Shown here in pieces: positions 1,791 through 61,895 of a DNA stretch of 64,000 nucleotides (position 1 is its first letter; every line of letters begins with the position of its first letter). A program made the position numbers and the translations under genes. The notes beneath the pieces were generated by a model. The model was not told where the DNA came from, made no database searches, and worked only from the letters and a program-made list of their open reading frames with translations. The stretch comes from Cordilura impudica (Eukaryota > Arthropoda > Insecta > Diptera > Scathophagidae), in contig OY821518.1 in assembly GCA_963682025.1 (NCBI GenBank), positions 9,057,590 through 9,121,589 of the forward strand. Direction: 5' to 3'.

Positions 1791-2294
1791 GAAAAAATTC
1801 GTCCACAGTCCACGTATGTTACAGAAGTCTATTCTGAATTTACCTGACTTTACAAAATTAATAAAAATCTAAGTCAATATTCCAAAAAGGCGTTTTTGAA
1901 TTTTTTTGTACTTTTTGATGAGAACGGAATTTCACCCGAACTACGTGGTACCTACTGTCAAATACGGAGGCAACAATACAATGATCTGGGAGTTTTATAG
2001 TGGCTGGGTGAAACATCAATTTTCGAAGGTCGGATGATCTATCCTAAAGATAGACTACCTTCATCGATTCTTGCCAAAAATGTAGGACAATGCAATTAAA
2101 TTCAATACATAATATATGTTCCACTCTAAAGATTAAAATCAGACAAAACAATATAACGTCTCCAGCGAGTTTAATTACAACATTACGTGGGCAAAATTTC
2201 CAGAAAATACATGTTTGAAATTAGTTTTATGAATGCCAAAAATATAAATATTAAATTTACTAAAATATAACCTTTTTATAAAAACATATTTTTA

Positions 2295-13136: not shown

Positions 13137-13550
13137 AAATTTTTAATTTCTATTTTTAATTTTTAATTTTTAATTTTGAATTTTTAATTCTTAATTTTTA
13201 ATTTTTAATTTTTAATTCTTAATTTTTAATTTTTAATTTTTAATTTTTAATTTTTAATTTTTAATTTTTAATTTTTAATTTTTAATTTTTAATTTTTAAT
13301 TTTTAATTTTTAATTTTTAATTTTTAATTTTTAATTTTTAATTTTTAATTTTTAATTTTTAATTTTTAATTTTTAATTTTTAATTTTTAATTTTTAATTT
13401 TTAATTTTTAATTTTTAATTTTTAATTTTTAATTTTTAATTTTTAATTTTTAATTTTTAATTTTTAATTTTTAATTTTTAATTTTTAATTTTTAATTTTT
13501 AATTTTTAATTTATAATTTTTAATTTTTAATTTTTAATTTTTAATTTTTA
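13137..13550 (+). repeat. (AATTTTT)n heptanucleotide array, left block
   Basis: Nearly perfect head-to-tail 7-bp units with a few substitutions near the left edge (TAATTCT variants). It is interrupted at 13551 by unrelated sequence and resumes at 13781. Confidence 0.95.
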
Positions 13551-13780
13551 GTATTCTTAATCGGACCGGTTTCTGGCATTTCAGCCTTCATCAGCGATTT
13601 ATTGAACATTGTGATAATTGTTATGTCTTAATTGAATAGATTGTTTCTATATGAAAATTTTTTCTACTAAGGGCAGCCGTGAGGTTTTGAACCATGAACC
13701 TTCACATACACTCGTACTTGCACTTTTTGGTCAGCGCTTTAACACACTCACCTAAAGTCAGGCCTACGAGCAGTGTTTAA
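13551..13780 (-). repeat. tRNA/SINE-like insertion inside the heptamer array
   Basis: Read on the minus strand from about 13765 to 13671, the order is tRNA-like. An A-box-like stretch (GGTGAGTGTGTTAAAGCGCT) is followed about 45 nt later by a B-box-like ATGGTTCAAAACC and then a closing segment. A match to the opposite arm is imperfect, so it is not a functional tRNA. The plus-strand left part contains GGACCGGTTTCTGGCATTTC followed by CTTCATCAGCG, a phrase that recalls conserved invertebrate SINE or element tails. Assignment as a tRNA-derived SINE or tRNA pseudogene is tentative. Confidence 0.4.
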
Positions 13781-16095: not shown

Positions 16096-16209
16096 ATGTG
16101 ACACGTGCGGTATTAATATACACACAACTGCAATGACTTCAACAATAGGAAGAATTACAACAAATACAACATATCTTAAGAAAACCAACAAACACACTGA
16201 ACATTTTTG

Positions 16210-27700: not shown

Positions 27701-30700
27701 AGTGGTATAGGGTATAAACATTTTGAATACATTAGAATTTTAAATTTTTAAACGCTTTTAGAAAGAACAATGAAGCTTCCAAAACTTCCAAAGCTTCCAA
27801 ATTAGTGGTGATTTGACGAGTTTTTTCCTGTAATTTTTTTCTTAAAAAAAAATATACAAAAATGTGGCATATTTTTATTCTGAGTAAATTTAAATTTATT
27901 AAAATCAGTTGAAATTTGTTAACGTTATTAAAGTTTTTTTAAAATCTGAAATTTACTTCCCTTAGTTCATTTTCATTACAAATTATAACAAGTTTTTTTT
28001 CTCACTTACTCTTACTCCAGGTAAATTAGTGGTGATTTGACGAGTTTTTTCCTGTAATTTTTTTCTTAAAAAAAAATATACAAAAATGTGGCATATTTTT
28101 ATTCTGAGTAAATTTAAATTTATTAAAATCAGTTGAAATTTGTTAACGTTATTAAAGTTTTTTTAAAATCTGAAATTTACTTCCCTTAGTTCATTTTCAT
28201 TACAAATTATAACAAGTTTTTTTTCTCACTTACTCTTACTCCAGGTGCTATTGAAAGCTTTTCAATTAAAAAATTTGAAAATCGAATGGCTTTTACAATT
28301 CTCATTACATTTGGAAATTTATAAATTTACATGCTTTTATAGAGACTAGCAGATTCCAGCCCTCGAAATTCGAGTGCAAAATCTAGGAAATTTTATTTTT
28401 TCATTAAATAAAGACCCTAAAGTTATGCTAATCAATTATAGCCAATTCACAAATCAACAAAAAACAAGTAAGAAAATTATAGTCGGTCTAGACCGACTAT
28501 ACGATACCCTATACCATGCGTTTAGAAACCCTATCTCTTAGGCCCAACTAACTGGACATAGAAAATAAGCAAAAACCAAATTTGAGTGGGATTTTTATTA
28601 ATTTTTTTGGCTGCAGATATAAAAAAGTTCATATCGGATGCTATATCTATAAAGGGGCTAGGTCCAAAAATGGACCGATCCTGATCATGTTTGGTAAAGT
28701 CTCTTGTATTTTGCAAAAATATGTACAAACAGAATTTGAGAAGAATCAGTGCAATATTTTTGTTTTTTAATAGATTTAACTGAAGATCGGGAAGAAGCTC
28801 TATATGGGGTCAAAGGGATCATTTTTGGACTACTCATTAGTGGATGTAATGAACGCATACAAACCCAATTTGAGTAAGATCTATATGACAATTTGGATCT
28901 TATGGCAATTTATGTCGATTTCATATGGGTAATTTGTATGGGGGCTAGGTCTGAACATGGACCGATTCTCACCAATTTCAATAGCGTTCATCCCATGGCC
29001 GATAAAAGCTTATATACCAAATTTCATCAAAATATATTCATATTTGCGACCTGCAGTTTGATTACAAGCTTTACATGGACACACAGACGGACGGACGGAC
29101 GGACATTGTTAAATCAACTCAGAAAGTGATTCTGATTCGATCGGTATAATTAAAGATGGGTCTAGGTCAAATATTTTTGGTTGTTACAAACAGCAGCACA
29201 AAGTCATTATACCCAAACCACATAGTGGTATAGGGTATAAATATCATGACTATGTAAATGACCATATATCCAGTACTATAACAGAGACTGCATCGCAAAT
29301 TTGTCGGAGGTCATTTATTATTAATGTGAGTACAAAAATTGCCAAAAAAAATCTTCAAATTCCAAAATCGGCAAAGTCAATTAATCGTTAAGTGTTGCCG
29401 GATTTAATTCGAAAAAATCAATATTTTTCTCACGGCCAGCTATATGCAGCTTGATCCAGAGTAGGAATGCCAAAAAATTTTATATTTTTGCACCGAATGA
29501 AAAAAAAAAAAAAATATTGTATATTGAAATAAAAAATAAATAAACTATACAAAATAAAATATTTTAATTTTACAATCCAACTACTTAAGAAAAATTGATT
29601 ATGAAAACATGCATGTCAATAAGTCCCGGTAAGTCGAAGCACGATAGGGTATACTAGTATATATCTGTGGTCACAAGCGATAACCGCCTAAGTCGACTTA
29701 AGAACGATTTGAGTTATGTATGCTGTCATATTATACTAAAAACGCTTTATATTTACGTGAAATCCCCATTTCTCTAACACTTTTTATTAAAAAGTTATTA
29801 ATGAAAACATACTGACCTAAGTCGTAACAAAGCCCCATTAGATTTATACAAACAGTTATTTTTCTCGAAAGAAGGATTTTCGCCGATTTGAGTTATGTAT
29901 ACTATCATATTCTACTAAAAAATCTTTATATTTACGTGAAATCCCCATTTCTCTAACACTGCTTTTTAAAAAGATATTAATACAAATATTCCGACCTAAG
30001 TCGTAATGAAGCGCTATTACATTTATATAAAAAGCTATTTTTCTCAAAAGCATGATTTTTGAGTTAGGCGGTTATTGCTTGTGACCACAGATATAATTAA
30101 TACATAATAAAATACATCTCCGGGCTGAATCGAGAAACTGTTAAGGAAAAATAAAGACAAAGTAATCAAAATTCTCTGAAAAAATTTATTATCTGTCAAG
30201 CAATTTGTAGTTGCTCTAAAAGAATTTAATTGATAGGTTCGTTGGGGTCAAATATAACCAAAATCTTCATAAAGGATTATTTTTAATATAAGAAGCTGTG
30301 ACTATTTATCGAGGTCTCCTAACATGAATAGTACCTCCTAGATTTCGATTGAGAACGACACACGGTTAACCAGTTGTGACTGACTGCCTGCTGAACCTGT
30401 GGTTAGGCGACACTACTGACAAATGAAATCTCTTGTCAACCTCCCTTGTCACCATCACTAGAAAGCCAGACGCCATCAATCTCAACAATAAAATACAAAT
30501 CAACAACCAATTTAAGGTGCTACAAGAAAACATTTTTAATATTTAACAAGTAAGAAAATTATAGTCGGTCTAGACCGACTATACGATACCCTATACCATG
30601 CGTTTAGAGACCCTATCTCTTAGGCCCAACTAACTGGACATAGAAAATAAGCAAAAACCAAATTTGAGTGGGATTTTTATTAATTTTTTTGACTAGAGAT

Positions 30701-37990: not shown

Positions 37991-40900
37991 ATGCAACTTA
38001 AACAGGTGAGTTATGAAGTTAAATACTTAATATAAAGTAGGCAAAATTACGGCTAACGTGAATGTTTCATATTTGTGAATTCATAACGGATTTTAAATAT
38101 TTTCAAACTTCTTTTATTATATAGTGACAGTGCTGTCATGTCATAATAACATAAGCAAATCTCAATAACAACTTTCAGCTTTTAAGTTAATTTTAAAGAA
38201 TGAAACAAATTGGGGTTTTCATGATGTATCTTGCAAATGTGCAAGTAAATAATATTTTAAGGTTTGCAAAACTTTGAGAGTTTCAAAAGTTCGAACATTT
38301 AAATACTTATGCCTTAATATTGTAATGTAATTTTTAATTATTTTCTTAGATAGAAAAAATAAATTGAAGAAATAAATTTTTTAAGAATTAGTGCAAATAC
38401 ATTTCTCGAATATTGGCATCTCTAATATATCTACTTAAAATTTCACTCGTTACTCGTTAATTTAATTGCTATTTTCTTTATATTATTTTCTTTTACCGAT
38501 AACGAGTGCCCCAAAATGGCGGCCAATTACTAAATATTATTTTGATAATAAACAAAATATAAAAAAATGTAAACTAATTAAATAAACTAGAACTTTCTGC
38601 TATTGAGAATTATTTTGTTAAATTTATATATTTATGGTATTGTAGTTAGTTGTAGTTTTCCATTAGCATTTCCAGTATAGCATAGTAATTATACATACAT
38701 ACATATATTGTACTCTATCTATCATTCACAAATTATGCATTTTGTGATGTACTGGAATGTTAAATGTATTTAAAAATTGTAAATCGAGAAGTGTCAACTA
38801 AAAAAATATTTTAGTTTTTTTTTGGTAAAAAAAAGTAAAATTGGAAAGTAAAATTAGAAACAAAAAACAATAAATGTATTTAATGAGAAAAAAATTGCTT
38901 AAGTAATAAGATAATTACATTTTTTTTACTCGTTATTTAATTAAAGTGCTGCCACAATTTTGGTAATGCCATATGTTTTATAAAGAGAATTGTGGGAATT
39001 AGATATTAGCCCGAAAAATTTACGTAAAATTACCCCAACAAATAGAAATTGCAAATTGAAGTAAGATAGGTTAACTATTAACAAACATTTACATAAAAGA
39101 TGATGATTACCATCCAATAAAAAAAATGCCATCTAAAATTTGTATAAATATGCCACCAAAAGTATTTCTGTTTACGTCAATAAATCTACATTCTTAAAAT
39201 TAAAAAGTAAAATGTAAATACATCGAATTAAAATTTTTGTTAACTCTTCACATTCATTTCGGACCACCTACAAAATATGCTAAATTACCTAAGGATTTCT
39301 TATGTAATTAATCTTTAAAAATTTAATATTTACAGCAAGTACTTTTTAACTGAAAAATTAGTTACCAAAACTATAATATTATTATTTGAGGATATTTTCT
39401 TATTTGTAACTCAAAACATATATTTAAAAATAAATAAAAATTGAATTTGTTAATTTACTTACGGCGTTACTATTAAATAAATAATTTTATAGCAGATTGA
39501 ACCGTGTATGCGGATAACAGTGCAAATCCCTAAGGATGCGGCGCAAAGGCTTCGCCAGTTGGCAACCGAGGGCAATCCAACTTTGCGCGCCCTTGGTATT
39601 CGCTCCGTACAATTAGAAGGGGATTCTGTGATTTCACTTAATGTTGGTGGTCAACAAATTGATGTTAAAATATCAGGTAATGTGACTTTTAATAGGGAAG
39701 ATAAATCTGTTTTAACGGTAAAATAATTTTATTTTTGAAAGATATATCATCAATTGTGGGCAATGAGGCGTCCGGAACGCCTATCAGTGATGTTGTTGGC
39801 AGCGTTGTTCCTAGTGGCGGAAGCAATGCGGGACCAATTAGTGATTTATCCCAATTACTCAATGTGGCGGGTAACATTGCTGGAACCAGTTCTAGTAGTA
39901 GTGCATTTGTTCAATTGCCCCAAAATCAGTTACAACAACAATCATCTGCACTGGTACAGCAGCAACAACAACAGCAACGAGGGAATGTGCCACCAAATAT
40001 TAATTTTGGTACAAATGTTTGCGGTATTGGTGGTGTTATGGAACCGACAACATTGTCGCTCCAACAACAACAATTGTTACAACAACGTCGTAACGTGATG
40101 CTTGGTGGTCCGAGCACTAGTAATGCAGCTATTAAGCAGCAGCAACAACAAACAACATTTAATACCGTTCTTGGGTCACAACAACAACAACAGCATCAAA
40201 CTGTATTCAAGTCACCGAATACAGTTTGCCCCATGGATGGAAAAGTACCTGTACCACCATTGCCTGTTGGAACAGGAAATTCCAGAGAATTTCCATTCGA
40301 AAGTATGCGACAAGCTCGTGTTTTGCAAGGTCGTGATAACGCTTTAAATACAGTTGTTGCAGCTGTATCTACACCAGGTGGAATACCTTTAGCAGCTGGG
40401 AAGCCAACAGTGTCTGCAGCTCCAGGAGGCAATGGCGGCATACAGCAGCAGCTTATGGGTGTTCTAGGGCCTCCGCCTAATGTTGCGTTAAAAGTGATAA
40501 AAAATCCACAAAGTGGAGAACTGATTACAACAACCGTATCAGCCGCCCCTGGTAAATCTCAATTTTTACAACCACCTCCTCCACCATATCCCGGTGTTTG
40601 CACAGTTAATTCTCCCGCCTCCAAAAATTCTCCGTCATCAGCTAAACCTATTCCAAGCTATTTGCAATCACGGGTCGTGCAGCCATCAATGCCAACGGCT
40701 TCCCCAGCGGGATCATCCGGTGGTGGTAGCTGTAATAGCAACAATATTGCAATGTCATCGCCTCTGTTAGTGAATTTATTGCAAAATGATAGCAATTCAA
40801 TATCATCGCAAATTGGAAATCAAATGAAATCATCGTCTATAACATCTCCACAACTACAGCAGCACCAGCATCAACAGCAGACGTTAATGCACCAACAGCA

Positions 40901-42668
40901 GCAACATTCACCTATGATGGCGGCGATGAGCCCTCAGCAACATATAATGAATTCACCATTGAGAACAACAACGCCGGGTGGAAGTGAATTCATGATGCAG
41001 CAGCAACCGCATCATTCACAGGTGCAGCAACAAATTGTTTCGGCACCTGGCACCCCAGACAATGTTTTAAGTGTGCCTTCTTCACCAACTGCGACCACTG
41101 CCATGCGTTCTATGCAAGGCCCGCAACAAATTATGTTGAGTCCCAGCAATAGTAACCTTTATGCTCAGCAGCAACAACAACGTTTTCAACAGCAGCAACA
41201 ACAGCAACAACAACAACAAATTTCACCTCAGCAGGCGGCTCTAATACGCCAACAGCAACTGCAACGCCAACAGCAGTTACAGGCAACTAATAATAATATG
41301 CAAAATCAGCAACGTTTCTTGCCGCAACAGCAGCAACAAATGCTGCATCAAACAATGGTAGTCAACACAATGTTATCAACTCAGCAGCAACAACAACAAC
41401 AACAACAACAGCAGCAGCAACAACAAATACGGCAAGTTAGAGTTGGGAATGCGGCAGGGATGGGCTTAAATCATCAAACTCCGCCATTGCCAATACAACA
41501 GCAGCAGTTGCAACAACACCAACGTCTTATTGGCATGTCAACAGGCCAACAGCAAATGCAACAACAACAACAGCAACAGCAATATATGTCTGGTAATTCT
41601 GGAAATATGTCACCAGCAGCCGCCCACTCACCCGCCTCCAGCCACCATTCAATGCATAGCCCTCACATGTCAACGCAACATTCACATCAACAACAACAAT
41701 TGCTATCACCTTCAACCACACCGGCGCAGTCTCCCCTCGCTGCATCACATCTTACACATCAATTGTTACCACCACCTTCACCCTCAACTGGTGGTCTGCC
41801 GCATAGTGCAAATGCGGCTTCTTCTTCTCACATAGTACCTTCTTCACCTTTAACTTTAAGTGTGGATCTACCACCACCAGATTACAATCAAGCGGCTGCC
41901 TCGTCGAGATGGCCTTCGGCGCTTAATAAACCGATGGATTCAGCAACAAAGTCAAGTTTTCAAGAGTTTACACGGTATCAGATGCAATACAATTTGCAAC
42001 AACAACAAACACAACAACAACAGCAACAAATTATTTCAGAAATTGCGAACTCTTTGCCTGGTGCTTCACCCAGCAGCCAAACAAATGCAACTGCTGGTGG
42101 TCACATGAATCCTTCTCCCATAATAGGACAGTCTAGCTTAAACTCGGTTCATGGGGTTGGCGTTGGTGGTGGTGGTGGTGGTGGTGGTAGTGGTGGTAGT
42201 GGTAGTGGTGGTGTTGGTGTTGGTGACACATCGCTAGATACCCAAACGGTCGTCGATGATTTAGCGGATCCTTTGATAACATTATCGGATCTAGATGCTT
42301 TAACAACAAATGATTTGGATGCTCTGCTGCCTACATTAAGCTGTGATATTGATTCGTCCTTAAGTCTGGATGATAAAAATGAATTGGAATCTTTGTTACA
42401 AGATGCAAAAGATCTTGATCTGGACCTAATCGAAGGTATGGACATCGATGAGACTGCGGCGGCAGCAACATCATTACTAGCTGGTGATGAACAAATGCCA
42501 CCTAATGTGACATTAACAATGGAACAGATGCAACAACAACAACAAGTTCAGCAGCAGTCACCCCCTCAACAACAAATTTTGCAGCAACAATTAATCCAGC
42601 AGCAACAACAAAGGCAACTGCAAATGCCTCAAAGTAATTTAATGCAGCAACAACAGCAGCAGCAGCAA

Positions 42669-42700
<32 letters not shown>

Positions 42701-45700
42701 ACAGCAACTGTCTCAAAAAATATTACAGCAACGTTTGCAACAACAACAACAACAACATCACCAACAACAAAATCAACAACAACGGTTTCTTATGAATTCA
42801 ACACAACAACCGCAACAACAATTTTCAATGCAACAACAACAACAACAACAACAACAGCAGCAGCAACAACAACAACATTTATCTAACGCTTCTACTTTAT
42901 CTACTACTCCCGCTTCTAGCTCTGGCAACTCTCAAACGGCACCCCCTTCGCAACAAAAACAATTTCTCATTAATCCACTAACAGGAGAATTAGAACTCAG
43001 TCCTTGCGATGAGAGTGAAACCGAGACAGAACAAGATATACTACCCAACTCCGCTATGAATAACAACTCCATCGTCTCGAATACCACCGCCTCATCCCAG
43101 GGTAGTACTACTTATACTCCTAATAATAGCACAAATAGCATTTATGACCTGTTACCCAACTCCTCTTCGCATTTCTCCGAAGATTCCAATTCAAACTCCT
43201 GTAGCACTGCCATGTCTAAGCTTTCGGCAGCGGACCATAACAATGGTGGCTCGTTAACACCTCAGCTAATGGGCGCTGGCTCAGATACAGAAAGATCTCG
43301 CGATTCTCAGATTTCAAACAAGTCACAGAAGAATAGAAAATCAAAGGCACATAGTACCGCAGGAATCGCCACGGGTACAGTGTGCAATAAACCTGGTGAT
43401 ATGGGCTCACCAAGATCTGCCTCATCCTCACCTTCAGTGCAAGCTATGTTACAAGGCGGTAATTCGAGTATTAAAAAGTCAAAAACAAATTTGTTAAGGG
43501 AAAAGTTACAGCAGGGTGTTAGAGAAAAGAAAAATAAGGAGGCTGCCAATACGGGAGGGTTAGCAAAACCAAAACGGGAAAGGGCCAAGGCGGGCAGTAA
43601 AACAAAAGCCGCTTTAACAGCAGCTACGACCTCAGCAAATACCCAAACACAGAATAAAGTAAACAGTGCAATAACCAGCCATTTAATAAATGTTTCCTCA
43701 TCGAACTCTGCAGCAACAAGTGCAAATGCTTTTTTAAATATGGAAAATATTGCCTCATCCCCATTATCTTCTTCTGTGGCTCCAAATGCAGCATCATCAA
43801 ATGTAGCTGTTACTGAAAAAATCAAATTACGCTTGAAATTGGAAAAATTGGAACCAATATCGACAGCCTATAAAGTGGATGTGACATTTGGCTCAGATAA
43901 TACACATCAACAACAACAACAGCAATCTCAGTTAAATGCTCAACTTTTAGCCAGCAATGTTATGCAACAGCAGCAACAAACTCATTCACAACAGACAACT
44001 CCCACGCAATATCAACAACATATAAATTTTAGTACACAACCACAACAGCAACAACAACAGCAACAACACACAATACAAATGCAGCAACAACAGCAATCAC
44101 TGCAGCAGCCTCAGAACACAAACCCGCCACAATATCAACAGGAGAATATTTTTCCTCAACCTTCATCCGGGGTATCAACAATAACAACAACAACAGCAGC
44201 AGGAAATTCTTCACCAGCAACTGATGAGCCTAGAGTTCCTCCTTTACACATAAGCTTACGAGGAGGAAAAAATTCCATCGTTATAAAAAATTCAAGAAAA
44301 GAACGTAAGAAACAACAAAATGTTCATAACAATGCGAATACAAACGATACAAATCTCCCTCGAACTGAAAGTGAATCAATGGACAACAAACCGAAATCAC
44401 ACCTAAAAAGATCACACATTATAAAAGATAATTCGAATGCAGGTGATGCTACAGCACCAGCAACTGAAGAACAAACCCACACAGAAGCCAAACAATCAAA
44501 ACTTTTGTTAAGTGCTACAAAAATAGCGACACCACAACTGAATGGTGTACCACAATCTAATTCCACAACAACTGCTGACAATAAGCCACCAGCTGGAGTA
44601 GCAGGCAGTACTACCACCTCATTATTATCGGGCAAAAATGGTCTTACCATAAGTGCTACAGTTCACAATGCCACGGAGGCCAATAAGTCGCAAAGTTTGA
44701 TGGATACACAAAGTTTAGGATCCAACAACTTGGGAACTGTTACACACTTACCACCCCAGCAGCTGCTGCAACCATCTACACAACAGCAATTAGCCAAAAT
44801 TACATCACTCCCGAACAGCATAACTCTTAGTACCATAACAAACCCTAATACGGGGACTGGCGGCACAGGACTAGTTGGAAATTCGAGTAATTTACAATTG
44901 AAACACAATTTGAAGACAACTGCTACAATAACGCCAATTCAAGGAAAGCCGCTAACAAAAAACCATAAACCACCGTCGTATATAACGGCGGTACAACAAT
45001 TACAATTACAAAAACAGCAGCAACAACAGTTAGCAGCCTTGGCCGAGAAGCAAACCCAACAACAGATGATTGAAGCAGCCGTAACAATGCTACCGAGTGC
45101 TACGACACTTAAAAGAGTAGAGATAACCAAGGTGGAGCGTAAAGATGCTATGGGTAAGGTGGAACATGTACTGGTGAAATCTAACGAACCCGTACTTACG
45201 TCCACGAATACGACCACAGCAATCATACAACAAGGAACAACAATAAAAGCTACTCAAGTTCTTACGGCCGTTACCACAACTACAGCGAACACAATTACAT
45301 CTTCGGCAGTTACACCAAATGCTAAAACTAATTTAAATACAGATAATTCGATCGCCAAAACTGATAATCATAGTATTACGAAAACCTCAGTCACATCTAC
45401 ATCCACAGCCACGGCACCAGCCACAACTTCAAGTGCTACTACTACAACCTTAAACTATAGTCAATCGTCGCTGGTGACTACCTTACGTAATTCTCCCGCT
45501 AGTACGGGTGGAGGTACACCAGCTCATACGAATAGTGGTGGTGGCGAAGATAGTGGTATAGAATCCATGGATGCTTTATCAGAAAAATCACCACACCAAT
45601 TAACCTCATGTAGTCCACAGTCGCTGCAGCCACAAATAGCTTCGGACAAACCGCCAAAACAACTTTTAGCTAAAACTTCCTCTAGAGCAGTTGAATTACC

Positions 45701-48700
45701 AAAGACAAATGACGAAACATCTACACAATTATCAATAGCTGCTGATGAAATTGAAAAAGCTTTAGCCAAAATGGAAGGTTTTCCTGATGATGATAATCTT
45801 CTAGTAGCCGACACATTAAAACAAGATGTTGAAAAACCTAAAGAACAACAAACACTAAATGGAGGAGATCACACTCTATTATTTGATAGCGATCACATTA
45901 AACAGAATGATGTTTATAATCGTACACATCACAATCATCACAACCACCATCATCATCATCATCATCATCATCACCACAATGCGGAAGATGATGATGACGA
46001 CGATGAAGATGATCTAATAAAAAACTTAACGGCTAGTATAATAGAAGAACACGAGGCGGGAGAAAAAGCAGCGAAAGAGAAATTGGAAAAGGAACGTAGA
46101 GAAAAGGAAAAGGAAAAATTAAAGATTGACGAGCAAGAAAAGCAGTCCAAACATCAGCAACAACAAGAAGATTTTGAGGAAAAAATTACCAACACAACAA
46201 CGATTAGAAAAAAGGAAGATTCTATTAAAATCGAAATCAGTTTCAATAACAACAATGATAAAGAAAAGAAAGATGAAGAAGAAGTGACAGATTTAGACAT
46301 TTTAGAGAAAAAAGATTTGAAATTGGGGGGAACCCTAAGTACTGAACCTGATGAATTGAAATCAGAACAATCATTAAGTCTTACATCCATATCCATAGAA
46401 ATACCACAACACAGTGACATTGATTCTCCACGTATTAGAACGAGAGCTAGTAGTCGTCTGGGTAGTCCAATGGATGTAGTAAAATCGAGCCCTTCGTTAG
46501 ATTCCTCATTAAACAAACATGTTATTGCCACAAGATCTTCAAGTAATTCTCATGAACGTATCAGTCTTAGTCCAAGCTCATCAACAGCGACTAACCAGCC
46601 ACAACAAAATCATCATAATAATAAGCGTAAACGTCAAGAATCCGAAAGTAGCAATGCTGGTAGTGAGTCAGATGCGAAACGAGCCTGTAGTGGTAGTATA
46701 AGTGGCAGCAGTGCTGTTACAATCAATAGTGAGTCTTTAGTTAGTAGTGGTGTTATTGGTGGAAATAAGAAATCGGATGATGTGGTTACTAAGAATATAA
46801 CAACGGTTACTAAAAAAATTGAAGAATCCTCCGATTCAGATGAACCTTTAATTGAGGTGGCTGGAAAAGTACGTAATTCTAAAGCAGCAGCTGCTGGCAG
46901 CATTGAAACACCAACAATAACAAATAATACTTCAATATCGGCTACGAATACAACGAGCTCTGTAGAAAATACAGCAGAAAAAGTTACTCGAAATCGTTCA
47001 CATCATCAACAAAATAGTAAGTACAATATTAATTACTAATGTCTACATTAAAACAAAAACAAAACTAGTCATCCATATGAAAAAAAATTTAATTATTTAC
47101 TGAAAATTTGATATTTTGTCATAAGTTTTATTTTAGGGTTAACTTGTAACATTTTAGATTAAAAGTGTGTCACTTACTGTTCAGAAATAGCTGAATAGGT
47201 ATTAACATCAGGAAAAGTAATATTTTTCATAAAGATTGGATGCAAAAAGTTATTTTTTGATATATATTTTTATACCCTCCACACCTCAGTGCCAGAGGGT
47301 ATATATAGGTTTTTCATTCCGTTTGTAACGCATCGAAATAAATTCCGAGACCCTAAAACCATATATTTTCTTGATCATTACAACAAGGGAAGTTGATATA
47401 ACGATGACTGTTCGTCTGTTCGTCTATAGAAATCACGATCACGCCGTCAATATCTAAGCTAGATCGTTCGTTTTTGTATAAAATCGTTTATTAACATCCC
47501 AAAGGAGTTGCTATTTAAAATCGTCAAAATCCCACATATTTTTTTTATCGTTAAAATTAAAGATTAAATATTAAAAATTAATAAAAATTAAAAATAAAAA
47601 AATAAAAATAATTTAAAAAAATCAACTTATTTTTGGCAAAAAATTTCCAGATATTAATATTTAAAAAGATCAAATTTTAAAATATTTTTATATCTGAATT
47701 AGCTAGTAATTTTTAATTTTGAATTTTTGATTTTTCAATTTTTAATTTTTAATTTTTACTTTTTAATTTATAATTTTTAATTTTTACCTTTTACCTTTTA
47801 ATTTTAATTTTTAATCTTAATTTGCAATTTTCATTTTCCATTTTTCTATTTTCATTTTTCAGATTTCATTTTCCATTTTTATTTTTCAATTTATATTTTC
47901 CATTTTTCAATTTTAATTTTTCATTTTTCATTTTTAATTTTTACTATTTAATTTTTCATTTTTCACTTTTCATGTTTCCTTTTTAAGTTTTAATTTTTCA
48001 TTTTCCATTTTTAATTTTTCATATTTTATTTTTAAATTTTTCATTTTTCATTTTCCATTTTAAATTTTTATTTTCCATTTTCATTTTTCAATTTTAAGTT
48101 TTCATTTTCCATTTTTCAATTTTTTTTTTCCATTTTTCAGTTTTCATATTTCATTTTTAATTTTTCATTTTTACTTTTTATTTTTCACTTTTAGTTTTTC
48201 ATTTTCCATTTTTCATATTTCATTTTCCATTTTTCACTATTCATTTTTCATTTTCCGTTTTTCATTTTTCTCTTTTCATTTTCTCCATTTTTCATTTTTA
48301 ATTTTTCACTTTTCATTTTTCTTGTTTCGTTTTTAATTTTTCATTTTTCAATTTTAATTTTTCATTTTCCATTTTTCACTTTTCATTTTCATGATTCGTT
48401 TTTAATTTTTCGTTTTTCAATTTTCATTTTTCATTTTTCAGTTCATATTCCATTTTCAATTTTTCGTTTTTCAATTTTCATTTTTTATTTTTCATTTTCC
48501 ATTTTTCAGTTTTCATATTCCATTTTTAATTTTTCATTTTCAATTTCTCATATTCCATCTTCCATTTTCATTTTTCACTTTTTCATGATTCGTGTTAAAT
48601 TTTTCGTTTTTCAATTTTCAATTTTCATTTTCCATTTTTAATTTTTCAGTTTCATATTCCATATTCCATTTTCAATTTTTAAATTTTCATTTTCCATTTC

Positions 48701-51700
48701 GTTTTTAATTTTTCATTTTTCAATTTTTGATTTTCATATTTCATTTAAATTTTTGATTTTTCATTTTTAAATTTTCATTTTTCACTTTTCATTTTTCATG
48801 ATTCGTTTTTAATTTCTCATTTTTCAATTTTCATTTTCCATTTTCCATTTTTCAATTTTAATTTTTAATTTTTCAGTTTTCAGTTTTCATTTTCCATTTT
48901 TCAATTTTCATTTTTCAGTTTTCATATTCTATTTTCAATTTTCGCTTTTAATTTTTAATTTTTCATTTTTACTTTTTCATTTTTCACTTTTCATCTTTCA
49001 TTTGCATGTTTCGTTTTTAATTTTTGATTTTCCATTTTCACTTTTCATATTTCATTTTCCATTTTTCATTATTCATTTTCATTTTTTATTTTCCGTTTTT
49101 CAATTTTCATTTTTCAGTTTTCGTATTCCATTTTCATTTTTCTTTTCATTTTTCATGATTAGTTTTTAATTTTTTAATTTTCATTTTTCACACTGGGTTT
49201 TATGTTTTTTTTTTTTAGAGGTATCTACATATTTTTGCTCGTATCTAAGCACAATGATGTCCGATTTACCCCATGTTAGATACCAACCTGGTGGGAATAA
49301 TGGCAAATGATATCGTAACATTACCCAGTTAAATGTTTTTTTTTTTTTTTGAATGAGAGTGATTTCAACAGACAGACGGACAGACGTACATCGCTATATA
49401 GACTCGAGCTGTGATAAGCATCAAGAATATATAGGGTCGGAAATTAGTTTCTCAATGCGTTACAAAGGGAACGACAAACTTATATATACCCTCTGCCAGT
49501 GAGGTGTGGAGGTTAGTTTAAATTAAAAATTAAAAATCAAAAATCAAAAATCAAAAATTAAAAATTAAATATTAAGAATTAAAAATTAAAAATTAAAAAT
49601 TAAAAATTAAAAATTAAAAATTAAAAATTAAAAATTAAAAATTAAAAATTAAAAATTAAAAAATAAAAATTAAAAATTAAAAATTAAAACTTAAAAATTA
49701 AAAATTAAAAATTAAAAATTAAAAATTAAAAATTAAAAATTAAAAATTAAAAATTAAAAATTAAAAATTAAAAATTAAAAATTAAAAATTAAAAATTAAA
49801 AATTAAAAATGAAAAATAAAAAATTAAATATAAAAAATTAAAAATAAAAATGAAAAATAAAAAATGAAAATTGAAAAATAAAAATGAAAAATAAAAAATG
49901 AAAAAAGAAAAATAAAAATTGGAAAATGAAAAATGAAAAACTAAAATTAAAAATTAAAAATTAAAAATTAAAAATTAAAAATTAAAAATTAAAAATAAAA
50001 AATTTAAAATTTAAAATTAAAAATTAAAAATCAAAAATCAAAAATCAAAAATTAAAAATTAAAAATTAAAAATTAAAAATTAAAAATTAAAAATTAAAAA
50101 TTAAAAATTAAAAATTAAAAATTAAAAATTAAAAATTAAAAATTAAAAATTAAAAATTAAAAATTAAAAATTAAAAATTAAAAATTAAAAATTAAAAATT
50201 AAAAATTAAAAATTAAAAATTAAAAATTAAAAATTAAAAATTAAAAATTAAAAATTAAAAATTAAAAATTAAAAATTAAAAATTAAAAATTAAAAATTAA
50301 AAATTAAAAAATAAAAATTAAAAATTAAAAAATCAAAAATTAAAAATTAAAAATTAAAAACTAAAAATTAAAAACTAAAAATTAAATATTAAAAATTAAA
50401 AATTAAAAATAAAAAATTAAAAATTAAAAATCAAAAATTAAAAATTAAAAACTAAAACTTAAAAATTAAAAATTAAAAACTAAAAATCAAAAATTAAAAT
50501 TAAAAATTAAAATTAAAAATTAAAAATTTAAAATTTAAAATTAAAAATAAAAAATTAAAAATTAAAAATTAAAAATTAAAAATTATAAATTATAAATTAT
50601 AAATTATAAATTATAAATTATAAATTATAAATTATAAATTATAAATTATAAATTATAAATTATAAATTATTAATTATAAATTATAAATTATAAATTATAA
50701 ATTATAAATTATAAATTATAAATTATAAATTATAAATTATAAATTATAAATTATAAATTATAAATTATAAATTATAAATTATAAATTATAAATTATAAAT
50801 TATAAATTATAAATTATAAATTATAAATTATAAATTATAAATTATAAATTATAAATTATAAATTATAAATTATAAATTATAAATTATAAATTATAAATTA
50901 TAAATTATAAATTATAAATTATAAATTATAAATTATAAATTATAAATTATAAATTATAAATTATAAATTATAAATTATAAATTATAAATTATAAATTATA
51001 AATTATAAATTATAAATTATAAATTATAAATTATAAATTATAAATTATAAATTATAAATTATAAATTATAAATTATAAATTATAAATTATAAATTATAAA
51101 TTATAAATTATAAATTATAAATTATAAATTATAAATTATAAATTATAAATTAAAAATAAAAAATTAAAAATTAAAGTTTAGTTTCATTCTTTAGGTAAGA
51201 AACCTGTTTTTATTGTTTTATTTTATTTTTTCAATATTAGTAATTTGTAGCCAAGATTCATTCGAATTTTTTTTTTTTTTTTTTTTAATTATCGTATGAC
51301 TTCTTAAGGTCTCAAAACAGGCTTATAGGGATCAAACTTTGCTTATTATTATGATGCCGGCTGGGTTAAATAATGAATTTTATTGGTGTTCTATGAACTA
51401 CTTGGGTATTTTCTACTCTAGTAAAAGAAAAATAATTAAATTTTTCAAATAGTAATTAATTCTTTTTAATGATCTTTTTTTTTGTAACCAACAAGAAAAC
51501 CAATTAACTTTAAATTTAATTGGTATTCGGATTTAATGTTTCAGTATCGGCAGTTTCAAAGCGGTAGCCGTACCCAATATTGGCTGGAGGGTATCAAAAA
51601 TTCGGCACAGGCGAATTTAACACTCTTACTTGTTTTACTTAAAATTAAATAACAAAAGAACAAAACAAAAATACAAAAAAAAAAAAGATTTTAAGGCAAT

Positions 51701-52356
51701 AATTTAAATTTTTTTTAGAAGCATCTATAGTGTTTCCCTCGTCTGCTGGTAATGAATCAAGTTCAACTTCAAATTCAATAACATCGTCTAATGTTGCAAA
51801 AGGTGTTAAAATTAATAATGGAAGTAATGGGCAAACAATACTCAGCACTGCAACAGGATCAAATAGTTTAACTATAATAACATCCGGTACAACGAGTTCA
51901 ACAACATCAACACATGCCACACGAGGAGCAACCCAAGGAGGAACTACATATGCTTCAAACAATCCAACTACAAATCATTCTATAAATATAAGCGGTAGTA
52001 GCGCAAGCGATAATGAAAAAATTGGTACCCGTCGTAGCGTTAGAGCATCTGCGGCTGCTAATAAAATAATTTATACTCGGGGCAGTAGTGGTAATAATGC
52101 AGAAACGAAAAGCAACAGTTTAGAAATCAGTGGGAAAATGTCTGGAGCTGGTAAAGCAAGCACCGTTAATGCAAACTCTGAGAGTGTTGCGGAGGCTCGA
52201 AGAAAAACACGTAGTGCAGGTAAATATTTGAGCGCAGTATTCTTACGCGATGATACATTGACAATTATTTTGTAAATTTTTAATATTCTTTTAGTGGTCG
52301 GAGAAACTTTGTTAACTGAAGGACGTCGTAGAAGAGGCTCTAGAGACTATAAGTGA
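37991..52356 (+). CDS. Ncoa6: Nuclear receptor coactivator 6 homologue, five coding exons
   Basis: The coding exons are 37991-38005, 39496-39676, 39742-47016, 51719-52219 and 52295-52356, all GT-AG with matching phases, giving 2677 residues to the first stop. The N-terminus (MQLKQ then IEPCMRITVQIP, AAQRLR, LRALGIRSVQLEGD) matches the conserved N-terminal domain of animal NCOA6, and SPLLVNLLQND matches its LxxLL box. Further LxxLL motifs lie at about 101-105, 408-412, 924-928 and 947-951. Four PPxY motifs, PPPY 345-348, PPDY 777-780, PPQY 1527-1530 and PPSY 1809-1812, would bind WW domains. Long polyglutamine runs, a poly-His run near 2127, an acidic/charged segment and a KRKR nuclear signal near 2359 follow. 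Ncoa6 is a nuclear subunit of the Trr (MLL3/4-like) histone methyltransferase complex and in Drosophila links Yorkie to it through PPxY motifs. The start is in a five-codon exon whose alternative upstream ATG (37986) is out of frame. Confidence 0.9.
38006..39495 (+). other. Ncoa6 intron 1
   Basis: A 1.49-kb AT-rich intron with donor GTGAGT and acceptor TTATAGCAG. No repeat or gene was seen in it. Confidence 0.7.
39742..47016 (+). other. Ncoa6 exon 3, a 7.3-kb coding exon
   Basis: A single open exon encoding about 2425 residues, dominated by CAA/CAG glutamine runs (for example near 41380-41425, 42640-42715 and 42830-42880), Gly runs near 42165-42200 and His codons near 45926-45978. Many long ORFs in other frames and on the minus strand are by-products of the repeats. 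The exon ends in AAT A followed by GTAAGT; reading on gives a false stop at 47039. Confidence 0.9.
47268..49515. mobile_element. Element Y: foldback-like repeat with heptamer core in the Ncoa6 intron
   Basis: The left end TATACCCTCCACACCTCAGT and the right end (reverse complement CCTCCACACCTCACTGGCAG) are inverted. The inversion continues inward for about 150 bp, through AACGCAT(C/T)GA, TTCTTGAT and GTCTGTCCGTCTGTC-type phrases. The centre, about 47530-49190, is a degenerate array of T5-containing units (CATTTTT, CATTTTCC and similar). Confidence 0.7.
49516..50575. repeat. (TTAAAAA)n heptanucleotide array
   Basis: About 1.06 kb of 7-bp units, the complement of the AATTTTT unit at 13-16 kb. 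It has more decayed patches near 49800-49940 and 50330-50540. Confidence 0.95.
50576..51153. repeat. (AATTATA)n heptanucleotide array
   Basis: A sharp switch to a second 7-bp unit, AATTATA, repeated about 80 times almost without change (one TTAATTA variant near 50670). Confidence 0.95.
51154..51718 (+). other. Remainder of Ncoa6 intron 3
   Basis: Contains a scrap resembling an R-type end (GGAGGGTATC ... TTACTTGTTTT near 51586-51637). It ends in the T-rich acceptor at 51718. Confidence 0.5.
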
Positions 52357-53418
52357 CCATTGTCTTGCGCCTCGGCTACAAGTTCTGAGGATAAATTCGA
52401 ATTTTATATTTTCCAAGATGACGATGATGATGGTGAAGGAAATTCCCTAGATCTCCAACAAAATGCAGATCTCAGATTAGCCGAGACGCAGGATAATCTT
52501 AGCTTAAATAGTCTTGATGATGATGACGGCGTTGATGACGACGAGGATGAAGACGATATTAAAAATAGGCTAAAAACGTTAAATAAGCAGAATAAGATTG
52601 ACGACAAAGATGATTATGAACAATATAGAAATATCTCATCGTTCGGCGTTGAGCCCGATGATTTGTTAGCTCTTGCCAATGATGTTACCGCAGATGAAAC
52701 TGCAAACTTATTGCTACCCGAACATCGGACAAATTTCGTTGATTTCGATGAATTCAATATATGTCTCAATAATATCTTAAATGATGACGTTGATTCCGAA
52801 TTAGAGCTTTCACCATCAATGGTTATGGCCGAAACTATAACAACAGAAGTCGATGATATGTTTAAGGTAAATATGATGCAAAAACATAAAAACATAAATT
52901 ACACGACGCCACCATCACCTATGGATATCAATGTTAGTAGTTGTATTAGTAGCAGTAGTAATAGTAGTTGTAGTCGAAGTCGAAGTATTCCACATAGTCC
53001 ACATACTGAACAGATACCAACACAATTAAATTCCGATGATGACGATTTATTGAATATGGTACATTTTGATGATCCTATGGAATTTAGTTTTTCATCTGAA
53101 CTAGACAATTGCAGCAACACAAATAAACCTGAGCTACTACATAGTAGTATACCATACAATATGCCGCAGGGCCATAATTATTTAATTGATCCTATGCAGA
53201 ATCATAATGATTTAGATGATGTTAATATCATGATGTCGGATCCCATCGATATACAACAATCCACATGCAATTCAACTGCTACGGTCTCGGCGTCAGTAAC
53301 GACTACCACCACTAATAATAATCATGATGACGAAGATGATGTAGATACACCACAACAAACAGCCTTAAATAATGTCATTAAACGCAATAGTCATAGTATT
53401 GTAAATATATTTCAATAG
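52357..53418 (+). CDS. Ncoa6: In-frame extension of Ncoa6 beyond a TGA stop (readthrough candidate)
   Basis: Immediately after TGA 52354-52356 the same frame stays open for 353 codons to TAG 53416-53418. The product is strongly acidic (DDDDDGEGNSLD, DDDDGVDDDEDEDD), then has FDEFNICLNNILNDD, Ser-rich and PPSP segments, and a second set of DDDDLLNM and EFSFSSELDN motifs, like an activation domain. The first ATG is about 155 codons downstream (52819), so internal initiation cannot explain the first part. The stop is followed by C (TGA-C, a leaky context). A possible stem (CCTCGG/CTGAGG, 52370-52390) begins 14 bases after it. Acceptor-like AG sites just downstream were out of phase with the upstream donor at 52219. 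With readthrough the protein would be about 3031 residues. An alternative is a reference error or an undetected splice form. Confidence 0.75.
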   Translation, partial: PLSCASATSSEDKFEFYIFQDDDDDGEGNSLDLQQNADLRLAETQDNLSLNSLDDDDGVDDDEDEDDIKNRLKTLNKQNKIDDKDDYEQYRNISSFGVEPDDLLALANDVTADETANLLLPEHRTNFVDFDEFNICLNNILNDDVDSELELSPSMVMAETITTEVDDMFKVNMMQKHKNINYTTPPSPMDINVSSCISSSSNSSCSRSRSIPHSPHTEQIPTQLNSDDDDLLNMVHFDDPMEFSFSSELDNCSNTNKPELLHSSIPYNMPQGHNYLIDPMQNHNDLDDVNIMMSDPIDIQQSTCNSTATVSASVTTTTTNNNHDDEDDVDTPQQTALNNVIKRNSHSIVNIFQ

Positions 53419-56400
53419 TATAAAAAATTCATAACTCTAAATACTACTCTACTCTATGTTTATTCAAGTATTTGCAAAAAGAACACAACAACAACAAATC
53501 ACACACTCCTCTATTAAAACAAAAAAATGCAGCGTTGATTTTTACTACTCCTCCTCCTAGTACTTTTCAATACAAACAAGACACAGTTGTCACATAAACA
53601 ACCTCTTGTCCTTAGTCATGTCATAACTTCAAATTTTCGTTTCAATTAAATGACTAAATTTGCTTCAAAATATCACAATTAAAAAAAAATAAAGAGTGTA
53701 TGCAAGAACATAAATTCTAAAACCTTTAGGTTTAATTTTCCTTTTAATTAAAAAAAAAAAAAATATGTAATAATAATCTTGTTTTTATTTTCTAGTCAAT
53801 TTATTTTGTTTAATACACCATTCGGTAGTAAGGATAAGGAACACAAGAGGATTTTTAAATATGTATCCTTGTATATAAATAAGCTGCATTTCCTTAACTT
53901 TTAAAAAGAAAAACATTTAATTTTGATCCTTTTAGTGAAAAACTTCTTAATATTTTATTTTTGTATATAATTTCTTTGAAACAATAAACACACCAAAATG
54001 TTGCCCCAAAATCAACAATTAGAAGACATACAATAAAAATGCAATAAATCGTTTAGCTAGTAATTTTATTTTACTTTTTTTTTTCGTATTCCAACAGAAA
54101 ATTGTCAACACTTTTCAATAGTAGATAAACAAAAGAAAACCAGCAAAATATGAAAAAAATTAACTAATAGTTATGTATATTTAAGTTTAATGTTTTTTTT
54201 TTTTTTATAACATTACTATTTGATTTCTTTGCAGTATGCAAATATTGTAATGTTTCTTTTTTAATTGCTTTTGTAACGATTGTTAAATTCATTTATATCT
54301 ATATATATAATATATATATATTTTTTTTTACAAAATTATACATGGTAGTTTTAAGTTAAATCCCTTTAACAATGATAACATTGTTAAAGAAATTATATAG
54401 GTTGTTTTTATAGAAAGTTTTCTTTTTTTTCTGTAATTTTTTTTTTCCTTTAAAAGTAATGACGATACCAATTTCCAAATTCATATACCCATACAACTTT
54501 TTTTGTAAGCATTCTTTTAGTTTAGAAAATGTTTTAATTTTTTTTTTTTGCATTATACACTTTAAAAATTGCATTCTTTTCTAAAATGTTGGCAAAACTG
54601 ATATTAATCATAGTCATAGTTACGAATTTAAATGACTGTTTTTCCAAAATTTTTCAAAAATATTGGAAATGAAATTTGATTTTTTTCACAGCAGTGTTGA
54701 CCCAGTTAGTTGCGAGTTCTTTTATGTTTGCTCTTTTATCTGTTTTGATTCTGATAAAATGTCATAGCAAAACGAATATGTCATAATAATAATAAATAAT
54801 TTGCAAAAGGCTTAGGTATCACATATTTTATTTTTTTTAACTTTTAAAATTGTTTAAAAACGATTTTTGTCATCCTTATAGATATTGATTAATATTTTGT
54901 AAAAATCTTACTTAAAAACTCATCAACCTTATGCAAAACTTATATTTTGTTTTCCGAACGCTACGAAAATCTTATTTAGCTCTGTTGGTAAATCCAATGT
55001 AATTCAGATGTTACGTAGTAGTATTTGAGTAACAAATTTCGCAAAGAAACTGGCTTTGAAATCGTAAATAAAGTTGTTGCTGCAGTTAACTGGAATCCAT
55101 TTTTTAAAAATATGAACCAGATATTTAGTTTGAACGTTGATATAATATTTGATTTGATTGCGAAAAATTCACGATTTTTACGACCCTGTCACTTAATTAA
55201 AACGATATATTTGTATTCTTAGTTCGTACACTGCAATGCTTGCAGATTTCAACAAATAGTAGATTTCTCTAAATTATTTCTTCGTTAACCAAGTTTCTTT
55301 CAATAAGTTGTACTTTAGCCCTTTAACAAAAATGTTGTATATATATACCCTTCAATAGCAAAACTAAAACACATAAAAAAAAGAAATATATATTTAAATA
55401 GCCAATAAAGTATATATTTTAAAAATATATAACTATACATATGTATATCATATGGATTAGTACCGGAAGCCCCAGACTTTCGTAAATATATGATAGTAAA
55501 ATGAAATGCAATAAATTGTGAATAAGATTTTCAATAAAAAAATAATCATGTATATAGAAAACAAATACTATTTTTGCTAAGTATTTATAAAGCCAATAAA
55601 AAATAAGTAAATTGGAGAAAAAGAAAACAAATATTTTTGCAAAAAAAAAAAAAAAAATAATAATTATATAAAAAGCCCTCCATTTCCTTGTAATTCTATT
55701 ATTGACTTTCTTTTGTTTGTATCAAATAATTCAAAATACATACTGTACGGCTTATATATATAAAAACTAAAAAGCAAAACAAAAATTACATTTATATATA
55801 CATAGATAATACAAAACAAAAAAAATAAATAAAAAAATAGAAACAATAAAACTTATAACATAAATTTAATGTAACATTTATAAGCAATTAGGTTGTAAGC
55901 TTTAAAGAATAAACTCCCTCTTAAATACATAGTAATTAATTTTAAAGTACTTTATATACAAAAAGAGAAGAAAAAAAAACAAAAAAATAAAAAAAAATAA
56001 TTAATTAGTAATTTAATGGAAAAACAAAGTGTCTTAAAAGAAATTGTAGTATTAGTTTATATCGTATATCTATAATAATTTATATTATATAAAAATATGA
56101 AAACTATTAAAAAAAAACTACCACAAACAATTCACATAATAAGAAAAAATTATTAATTAATTATGGTTATTATTATTTAATTTAATGTCTAATAAACAAA
56201 ACAAAACAAAAAAAAAAACGAAAAAGTATGCATGAAAAACAATTTAATTATATTATTATTAATTCTATAATTATTACAATATTGCAATTGTATCCCTTTA
56301 TAACTATTATTATTATTAAATATATCTTTTTAGTTTGTTTTTTTTTTTTATATTAATTTTATTTGAAAATGCAACAAAAACACAAAATCCCTGAAGATAA

Positions 56401-61120: not shown

Positions 61121-61895
61121 ATGTTAGTCCGATCACAGGGTAGATGTGTAAACATCTAGTAATTAAAGATTTTTTATGGCACTTTTTTAAAATCAAACAG
61201 AAAGCGTCATCTATGTATCACTTATAGCAATCAACTGCAGGGGCTCTGCTAATATAAAAATATTTTTTGTTATTTATTATTTCATTTTTTATTTTTCGTT
61301 TTTCATTTTTCGTTTTTCATTTTTTATTTTTCGTTTTTAATTTTTTATTTTTCGTTTTTTATTTTTCATTTTTAATTCTTTATTTTTCATTTTTTGTCTT
61401 TAATTTTTTATTGTTCCTTTATTGTTCTTTTTTATCTTTCATTCTTTATTTGTAATTTTTTATTTTTCATTTTTCGTTTTTTTTTTCATTTTTCATTTTT
61501 CGTTTTTTATTTTTCATTTTTCTTTTTTAATTTTTTATTTTTCATTTTTAATTCTTTATTTTTCATTTTTTATTTTTCGTTTTTCATTTTTTATTTTTCA
61601 TTTTTTATTTTTCGTTTTTATTTTTCATTTTTTATTTTTCGTTTTTTATTTTTTATTTTTCGTTTTTAATTCTTTATTTTTAATTTTTTATTTTTCATTT
61701 TTCGTTGTTCATTTTCATTTTTCATTTTCATTTTTAATTCTTTATTTTCATTTTCAAACAGGTTATTACATATCATAATTTTTTACCAATACAATCATAA
61801 GTCACACCGATTTTGTCTTACGTGTTACATGTTGCGCTGTTTTTGTGATTGTATTGTGAAACAAATTTTTACCCCCTGAGCGTATAGATGTTTAC
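61121..61895 (+). mobile_element. Interspersed element with internal heptamer array, copy 2
   Basis: Homologous to 7700-8420 at both ends (TCCGATCACAGGGTAGATGT; then TTATTACATATCATAATTTT and GAGCGTATAGATG). The array (about 61265-61750) has the same T5-based 7-bp lattice but a different unit mixture (CGTTTTT, TATTTTT, AATTCTT). Confidence 0.75.

What the first reader, a model, noticed from the sequence alone, without database searches (positions are those of the whole stretch)
52354..53418. Candidate stop-codon readthrough adds ~354 residues to Ncoa6
Seen: the Ncoa6 TGA is followed in frame by 353 open codons in AT-rich DNA where stops should be frequent. The product is acidic and activation-domain-like. 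The first ATG is ~155 codons in. The stop context is TGA-C, and a small stem (52370-52390) follows. Known: TGA-C is the leakiest context and readthrough is unusually common in Drosophila. Inference: a minor Ncoa6 isoform with a C-terminal acidic extension on a Trr/Yorkie coactivator.
Basis: partly seen in the sequence, partly recalled or inferred. Interest (0 to 1): 0.87.

Follow-up and report, generated by a model that had tools for sequence, protein, structure and literature searches.

The report
Leaky stop lengthens fly gene-activator protein
In a fly's Ncoa6 gene the stop codon is followed, in the same reading frame, by 353 more codons whose protein sequence is conserved in 13 related sequences, so ribosomes are predicted to read through the stop at times and make a longer Ncoa6 with an acidic tail that would likely help switch on genes.

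Summary
A TGA-C stop at 52354 ends Ncoa6 (...RRRRGSRDYK) and 353 open codons follow in frame. The extension is a conserved protein: 13 homologs were found, one of them a Lucilia cuprina record that holds the extension alone, and a Stomoxys Ncoa6 model also carries it. Annotated Ncoa6 of Calliphora vicina, two Glossina and Drosophila busckii end at this same stop position. Conservation starts right after the stop (SCASA in 11 of 11 homologs covering it; Stomoxys has FCASA). The first AG after the stop is at 52381, so canonical splicing cannot put those residues in frame, and the first ATG lies past the most conserved core. No SECIS was found. Readthrough is the best explanation, but no translation data and no DNA of relatives were available: conservation of TGA itself is inferred. 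A splice isoform (52219 to 52418) that skips the TGA remains possible. This is a new member of a known kind, notable for its length and its gene, a subunit of the Trr H3K4 methyltransferase complex.

The parts
39493..39676 (+). Ncoa6 exon coding most of the NCOA6_TRADD-N match
   Evidence: Pfam PF13820 E 1.9e-16; tblastn with Calliphora vicina Ncoa6, 95% identity over 61 residues
39742..47016 (+). Large Ncoa6 exon
   Evidence: tblastn with C. vicina Ncoa6, 65% identity over 2599 columns; splice sites placed
51719..52219 (+). Penultimate Ncoa6 coding exon
   Evidence: donor GTAAAT, phase 1
52220..52294 (+). Intron
   Evidence: GT...AG; joining gives ...TRSAVVGETLLTEGRRRRGSRDYK, matching the C-termini of other fly Ncoa6 proteins
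52295..52353 (+). End of the main Ncoa6 ORF
52354..52356 (+). TGA stop codon, next base C; candidate readthrough site
   Evidence: stop position shared by 4 other annotated fly species
52357..53415 (+). Readthrough extension, 353 codons, acidic, low-confidence (probably disordered) in structure prediction
52363..52416 (+). Residues 3-20, SCASATSSEDKFEFYIFQ: conserved block directly after the stop and upstream of the best splice acceptor that would skip the TGA
   Evidence: mean majority fraction 0.83
52660..52824 (+). Conserved core, residues 102-156 (..ETANLLLPEHRTNFVDFDEFNICLNNILNDDVDSELELSPS..), activation-domain-like by composition
   Evidence: mean majority fraction 0.86; 24 of the 28 columns invariant in all 14 rows lie here; FxDFxEFNxCLNNxLN in the window, 13 of 13 homologs and P0014
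53362..53415 (+). Conserved C-terminus ALNNVIKRNSHSIVNIFQ
   Evidence: 12 of 13 homologs end at the same residue; P0012 is short
53416..53418 (+). Second stop, TAG
52418..53415 (+). Possible alternative exon start: acceptor TTTTCCAAG|ATG, in phase with donor 52219, would skip the TGA
   Evidence: no transcript data seen here
53688..53693 (+). AATAAA, candidate poly(A) signal downstream of the second stop (others at 53983, 54032, 54043)

Best explanation
The Ncoa6 TGA-C stop is likely read through by a minority of ribosomes, which would add a 353-residue conserved acidic, probably disordered tail to this coactivator. Shown: the TGA, the open frame, its protein-level conservation starting right after the stop, the shared position of the first stop in other flies, and the shared end. 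Inferred: that TGA itself is conserved, that a near-cognate tRNA decodes it at low frequency helped by the TGA-C context, and that the tail acts as an extra activation or interaction surface within the Trr H3K4 methyltransferase complex. If so, termination efficiency would set the ratio of a short and a long Ncoa6.
For: Homologs: 11 proteins at E 1.6e-107 to 2.5e-29 with the window's extension alone; the profile built from these added P0012 (7e-64) and P0013 (1.6e-26), 13 in all. Of the 13, 10 begin at the codon aligned with the TTG two codons after the stop, one (P0009) begins further in, one (P0005, Lucilia cuprina) is annotated from an internal Met, and one (P0004) reads ...RRRRGSRDYKWPLSCASATGSEDKFE, so the in-frame link to Ncoa6's end is seen in a second species. 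SCASA is in 11 of 11 homologs that cover it. Twelve of 13 end at the same residue. Ncoa6 of Calliphora vicina, Glossina austeni, G. brevipalpis and Drosophila busckii (5 of the 6 records found) end exactly at ...SRDYK. The first AG after the stop is at 52381, and the acceptors at exon starts 52383 and 52390 are out of phase. First ATG at codon 155. No SECIS match. TGA, and C after it, are favoured in fly and mosquito readthrough candidates (PMC5100048, section 7 part 1).
Against: No ribosome-profiling, mass-spectrometry or transcript data. No DNA of relatives, so neither the identity of the stop nor dN/dS was tested. The extension has neither a significant RNA structure near the stop nor the CAGCAGCA motif between 51700 and 53500, though only 9% and 23% of Anopheles candidates have them. 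A plausible in-phase acceptor at 52418 exists. The sixth Ncoa6 record, Stomoxys P0014, reaches the extension by a predicted splice that skips the TGA and the preceding exon, and reads VVVFCASA where the window reads *PLSCASA; it may be a gene-finder artefact, but that was not tested. No Drosophila record with the extension turned up; the searches were capped, so this absence is weak.
Confidence: 0.8

Rival explanations
1. Alternative splicing skips the TGA: donor 52219 joins exon start 52418 in phase, so the tail is translated from an ordinary spliced isoform and no readthrough is needed.
For: The acceptor TATTTTCCAAG has the same pyrimidine fraction (0.71) as the accepted one at 52295 and ends in AAG like the accepted one at 39742; it is in phase. 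The Stomoxys model P0014 joins the extension by a predicted splice, though at another point.
Against: It would leave out residues 1-20 after the stop, yet residues 3-20 rank 40th of 334 windows of that length in conservation (majority fraction 0.83) and SCASA is in 11 of 11 homologs covering it; it would also lose the conserved RRRRGSRDYK end. In the divergent P0013 SCASA is kept while the IFQD that overlaps the acceptor is not.
Confidence: 0.09
2. The downstream ORF is a separate protein started at a non-AUG codon: termination at TGA and reinitiation at the TTG three bases later (52360), or internal initiation.
For: In 10 of the 11 homologs left when P0004 (begun upstream) and P0005 (annotated from Met) are set aside, the ORF call begins at this codon, which suggests a start-type codon (ATG, GTG or TTG) there, while TTG is 19% of Leu codons in this gene. 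The Lucilia record holds the extension alone.
Against: Poor context (CCA before, T after); P0004 has Leu inside a longer frame; the two ORFs are in frame in the window and in P0004. Constraint on the same codon is also expected for a readthrough context.
Confidence: 0.05
3. The stop is changed to a sense codon in RNA or in part of the population: A-to-I editing of UGA to UGG, an assembly error, or a recent nonsense mutation.
For: P0004 shows W at the stop position, which could be TGG, or TGA read by a code in which it means W.
Against: The stop position is shared by four other annotated species, so it is neither recent nor a single error; no unusually stable fold around it. Dunn et al. saw no sign of A-to-I editing at the fly readthrough stops they could test (PMC3840789, passages).
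Confidence: 0.04
4. Selenocysteine insertion at the TGA.
For: The stop is a TGA.
Against: No SECIS match among Rfam hits in 51700-56000 at E up to 5; the one homolog readable at this place, P0004, has W.
Confidence: 0.01

Closest known systems
Drosophila vvl/dfr stop-codon readthrough (PMC8417969; abstract and passages seen)
   Same: Regulator of transcription; long in-frame second ORF (286 residues there, 353 here); tail disordered and activation-domain-like; conserved among flies.
   Different: Stop there is UAG read as Gln, with a predicted hairpin; a DNA-binding factor rather than a coactivator subunit; tail with glutamine-rich and other low-complexity stretches rather than D and E; experimentally shown there, not here.
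Conserved readthrough candidates of Drosophila and Anopheles (Jungreis et al. 2016, PMC5100048; abstract, first parts of sections 5 and 7, and passages seen)
   Same: TGA with C after it, conserved second ORF and second stop, long first ORF.
   Different: No significant RNA structure or CAGCAGCA here; TGA conservation could not be tested at DNA level; whether Ncoa6 is in their lists could not be checked (supplements not open to me).
Annotated short Ncoa6 of flies (Calliphora vicina, Glossina, Drosophila busckii)
   Same: Same gene and same end ...RRRR(G/S/V)SRDYK.
   Different: These records stop at the first stop and lack the extension.

Membership tests
Conserved functional stop-codon readthrough | Second ORF shows protein-coding conservation from its first codons | tested here: met
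   13 protein homologs; residues 3-20 conserved. Protein level only; PhyloCSF not possible.
Conserved functional stop-codon readthrough | First stop present beyond close relatives | tested here: met
   Ncoa6 ends at the same residue in 4 other annotated species, 5 of the 6 records found; the sixth, Stomoxys P0014, is a model that skips this exon end.
Conserved functional stop-codon readthrough | Same stop codon (TGA) in all species | not testable with these tools
   No DNA of relatives; genome contigs and viral contigs gave none; the genome search did not complete.
Conserved functional stop-codon readthrough | Second stop conserved | tested here: met
   12 of 13 homologs end at the same residue; P0012 is short.
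Conserved functional stop-codon readthrough | Not explained by alternative splicing | tested here: inconclusive
   No canonical acceptor can include SCASA in frame, but an in-phase acceptor at 52418 exists and no RNA data were seen.
Conserved functional stop-codon readthrough | Not explained by a downstream ATG | tested here: met
   First ATG at residue 155, at the end of the conserved core; the Met that starts the Lucilia record is not conserved (L in the window and P0012, E in P0003).
Conserved functional stop-codon readthrough | C after the stop (enriched, not required) | tested here: met
   TGA-C in the window; Pro (CCN) follows in P0004; other relatives not readable there.
Conserved functional stop-codon readthrough | RNA structure within 100 nt (9% of Anopheles candidates) or CAGCAGCA (23%) | tested here: not met
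   enriched but not defining (percentages).
Conserved functional stop-codon readthrough | Extended protein or footprints observed | not testable with these tools
   No ribosome profiling or mass spectrometry available.
Ncoa6 | NCOA6_TRADD-N domain and long match to fly Ncoa6 | tested here: met
Selenoprotein | SECIS in the 3' UTR | tested here: not met
   Rfam only.

The most novel reading that the evidence does not exclude
In calyptrate flies the Ncoa6 subunit of the Trr (COMPASS-type) complex exists in two forms set by translation termination: reading through one TGA adds a conserved 353-residue acidic activation module with an invariant FxDFxEFNxCLNNxLN core, so that leaky termination tunes enhancer and Hippo/Yorkie target activation, a layer that annotation leaves out or, in Lucilia, records as a separate kinase-named protein.
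Probability: 0.35. Interest if true: 0.7.

Novelty: new member of a known kind. Interest (0 to 1): 0.55.

Why it matters
Stop-codon readthrough is common in flies. If this case is translated, the tail gives a COMPASS-type coactivator a second form controlled at translation, and it explains a conserved block of 353 codons that the records seen here either leave out or list as a protein of its own. The case can be tested directly with a reporter, footprints or a tail antibody.

Tried and rejected
RNA structure as the driver: four folds around the stop, none better than shuffles. Selenocysteine: no SECIS. The one Rfam near-hit (mir-31, 54583-54653, 24.7 bits against a gathering score of 51) does not carry the miR-31 sequence as I recall it; treated as chance. 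Structure prediction of the extension (12-row alignment) gave mean pLDDT 44.8 and pTM 0.14: disordered or uninformative, so no fold search was made. No solved-structure match and no Pfam match for the extension. DNA of relatives: genome contigs and viral contigs held none. Papers: 5 held papers have both Ncoa6 and readthrough, none on this by title and start of abstract; CG14023 (fly name recalled) is in 6, none on readthrough by title; one irrelevant paper for readthrough + stop codon + housefly; of 53 papers with Ncoa6, Drosophila and isoform, 10 were listed, none on this by title. Jungreis 2011 is not held. The gene lists of Jungreis 2016, FlyBase 2015 and Dunn 2013 lie in supplements or outside repositories that I could not open, so a prior listing is not excluded.

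Full report
What is there. The window is AT-rich DNA (GC 29.6%) from a fly, judged by its Ncoa6. That gene runs on the + strand: an exon at 39493-39676 with the NCOA6_TRADD-N match, a large exon 39742-47016, an exon 51719-52219, and a last exon from 52295. Joining the last three gives one open frame that ends at TGA 52354-52356, next base C, after ...RRKTRSAVVGETLLTEGRRRRGSRDYK. The same frame is then open for 353 codons to TAG 53416-53418.

More than chance. The other five frames of that segment carry 8 to 74 stops. In 3000 Markov simulations of this window's noncoding DNA the longest open run was 96 codons; real simple-repeat DNA in the window reaches 148. Codon log-odds are positive in frame 0 in each of five sub-segments of the extension, weakest (0.15) in the first 20 codons, and negative beyond the second stop.

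The extension is a conserved protein. A search of 5.8 billion proteins with the 353 residues gave 11 homologs at E 1.6e-107 to 2.5e-29; a profile search added two, 13 in all. One, P0005, is an annotated Lucilia cuprina protein under a kinase name; the window's extension itself has no Pfam match. Twelve are unnamed. A search with the joined Ncoa6 protein, scored on its C-terminal 439 residues, found six annotated records. Five of the six (Calliphora vicina, Glossina austeni, G. brevipalpis, two of Drosophila busckii) end precisely at ...SRDYK; the sixth, Stomoxys calcitrans P0014, skips that end and carries the extension through an odd junction ...NNNYDK-VVVFCASAL.... So the first stop is old. 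A tree of 15 extension rows puts the window with P0012 and P0001; Lucilia lies in a neighbouring group (support 80/73 for joining the two), and Stomoxys in a third. The extension thus spans blowflies and muscid flies (families recalled). The last 190 residues before the stop are 55% identical between the window and Calliphora, the extension 48% between the window and Lucilia: a broadly similar pace.

Where conservation lies. Blocks that stand out: residues 3-20 directly after the stop (mean majority fraction 0.83), a core at 102-156 (0.86), 229-246 (0.76) and the C-terminus 326-353 (0.85); 157-172 has 0.69 and the other stretches 0.44-0.57 (14 rows; P0014 not among them). FxDFxEFNxCLNNxLN is in the window, in 13 of 13 homologs and in P0014. 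Twelve of 13 homologs, and P0014, end at the same residue; P0012 is short.

Why readthrough. A protein containing SCASA in frame needs either decoding of the TGA or a start between it and SCASA: the first AG after the stop is at 52381, and the next two acceptors are out of phase with donor 52219. SCASA is in 11 of 11 homologs that cover it (P0005 and P0009 begin later); P0014 has FCASA. The first ATG is at codon 155, at the end of the core; the Met that starts the Lucilia record is not conserved. Ten of 13 homologs begin at the codon aligned with the TTG two after the stop, as expected if a stop blocks them upstream; P0004 alone continues from LLTEGRRRRGSRDYK through W into PLSCASAT (its first residue is written M). 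That W is either TGG or a TGA read by a code in which it means W; either way the two ORFs are in frame there too. Because those ten calls suggest ATG, GTG or TTG at a codon that is TTG here, and TTG is 19% of Leu codons in this gene, this codon may be constrained beyond its amino acid, as a readthrough context or a non-AUG start would be; the rows are related, so no probability is given.

What is not supported or not known. There is no CAGCAGCA in 51700-53500. No SECIS. The structure model of the extension has very low confidence (mean pLDDT 44.8), as a disordered acidic tail would; net charge is about -55. An isoform spliced 52219-52418 would also make the acidic part without readthrough; its acceptor is credible but it discards the conserved first block. 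No translation, transcript or relative's DNA was available (genome search did not complete).

Mechanism. Most likely, most ribosomes stop at TGA and a minority insert an amino acid by near-cognate decoding, favoured by TGA-C, and continue to TAG. The long form would carry an acidic tail with an invariant hydrophobic-acidic core, which by analogy with the vvl/dfr case (PMC8417969, abstract and passages) would act as an activation or interaction region. Ncoa6's place in the Trr complex and its binding to Yorkie come from the abstract of PMC4118621. The effect on either is inference.

Known or new. Over 300 D. melanogaster genes have predicted conserved readthrough (PMC5100048, section 5 part 1; PMC4528330, passages). 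This is a new member of that kind as far as the searches named here show, but the gene lists themselves could not be opened.

Noticed in passing
protein P0014 (Stomoxys calcitrans Ncoa6 model): The model jumps from the equivalent of window 46262 to 52366 with residues VVV at the join, dropping the penultimate exon and the first stop; perhaps a gene-finder route around the stop, but a real splice form is not excluded.
   Followed up: partly
protein P0004: Unnamed relative reads W at the stop position: TGG, or TGA under a code with TGA = W. If TGG, a fly lineage has made the extension constitutive.
   Followed up: partly
window 7786-8268, 13138-16097, 47709-49190, 49520-51175, 61261-61754: Long arrays of 7-base AT-rich repeats, two of them inside the Ncoa6 intron 47017-51718; some create spurious FFIFHFSF-type ORFs.
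   Followed up: partly
window 27799-28246: A 224-base tandem duplication with 100% matches: very recent or an assembly artefact.
   Followed up: no
window 25983-26337 and 29705-30059: The same 179-base tandem pair occurs twice, 3.7 kb apart, pointing to a larger duplication.
   Followed up: no
window 20162-21286, - strand: Two ORFs that look like pieces of a mariner-type transposase (name recalled, not from a call; ORFs).
   Followed up: no
window 256-1868, - strand: ORFs that look like pieces of a LINE-type endonuclease/reverse transcriptase (recalled, not from a call; ORFs).
   Followed up: no
window 54583-54653: Sub-threshold Rfam mir-31 match (24.7 bits against 51); judged chance.
   Followed up: yes
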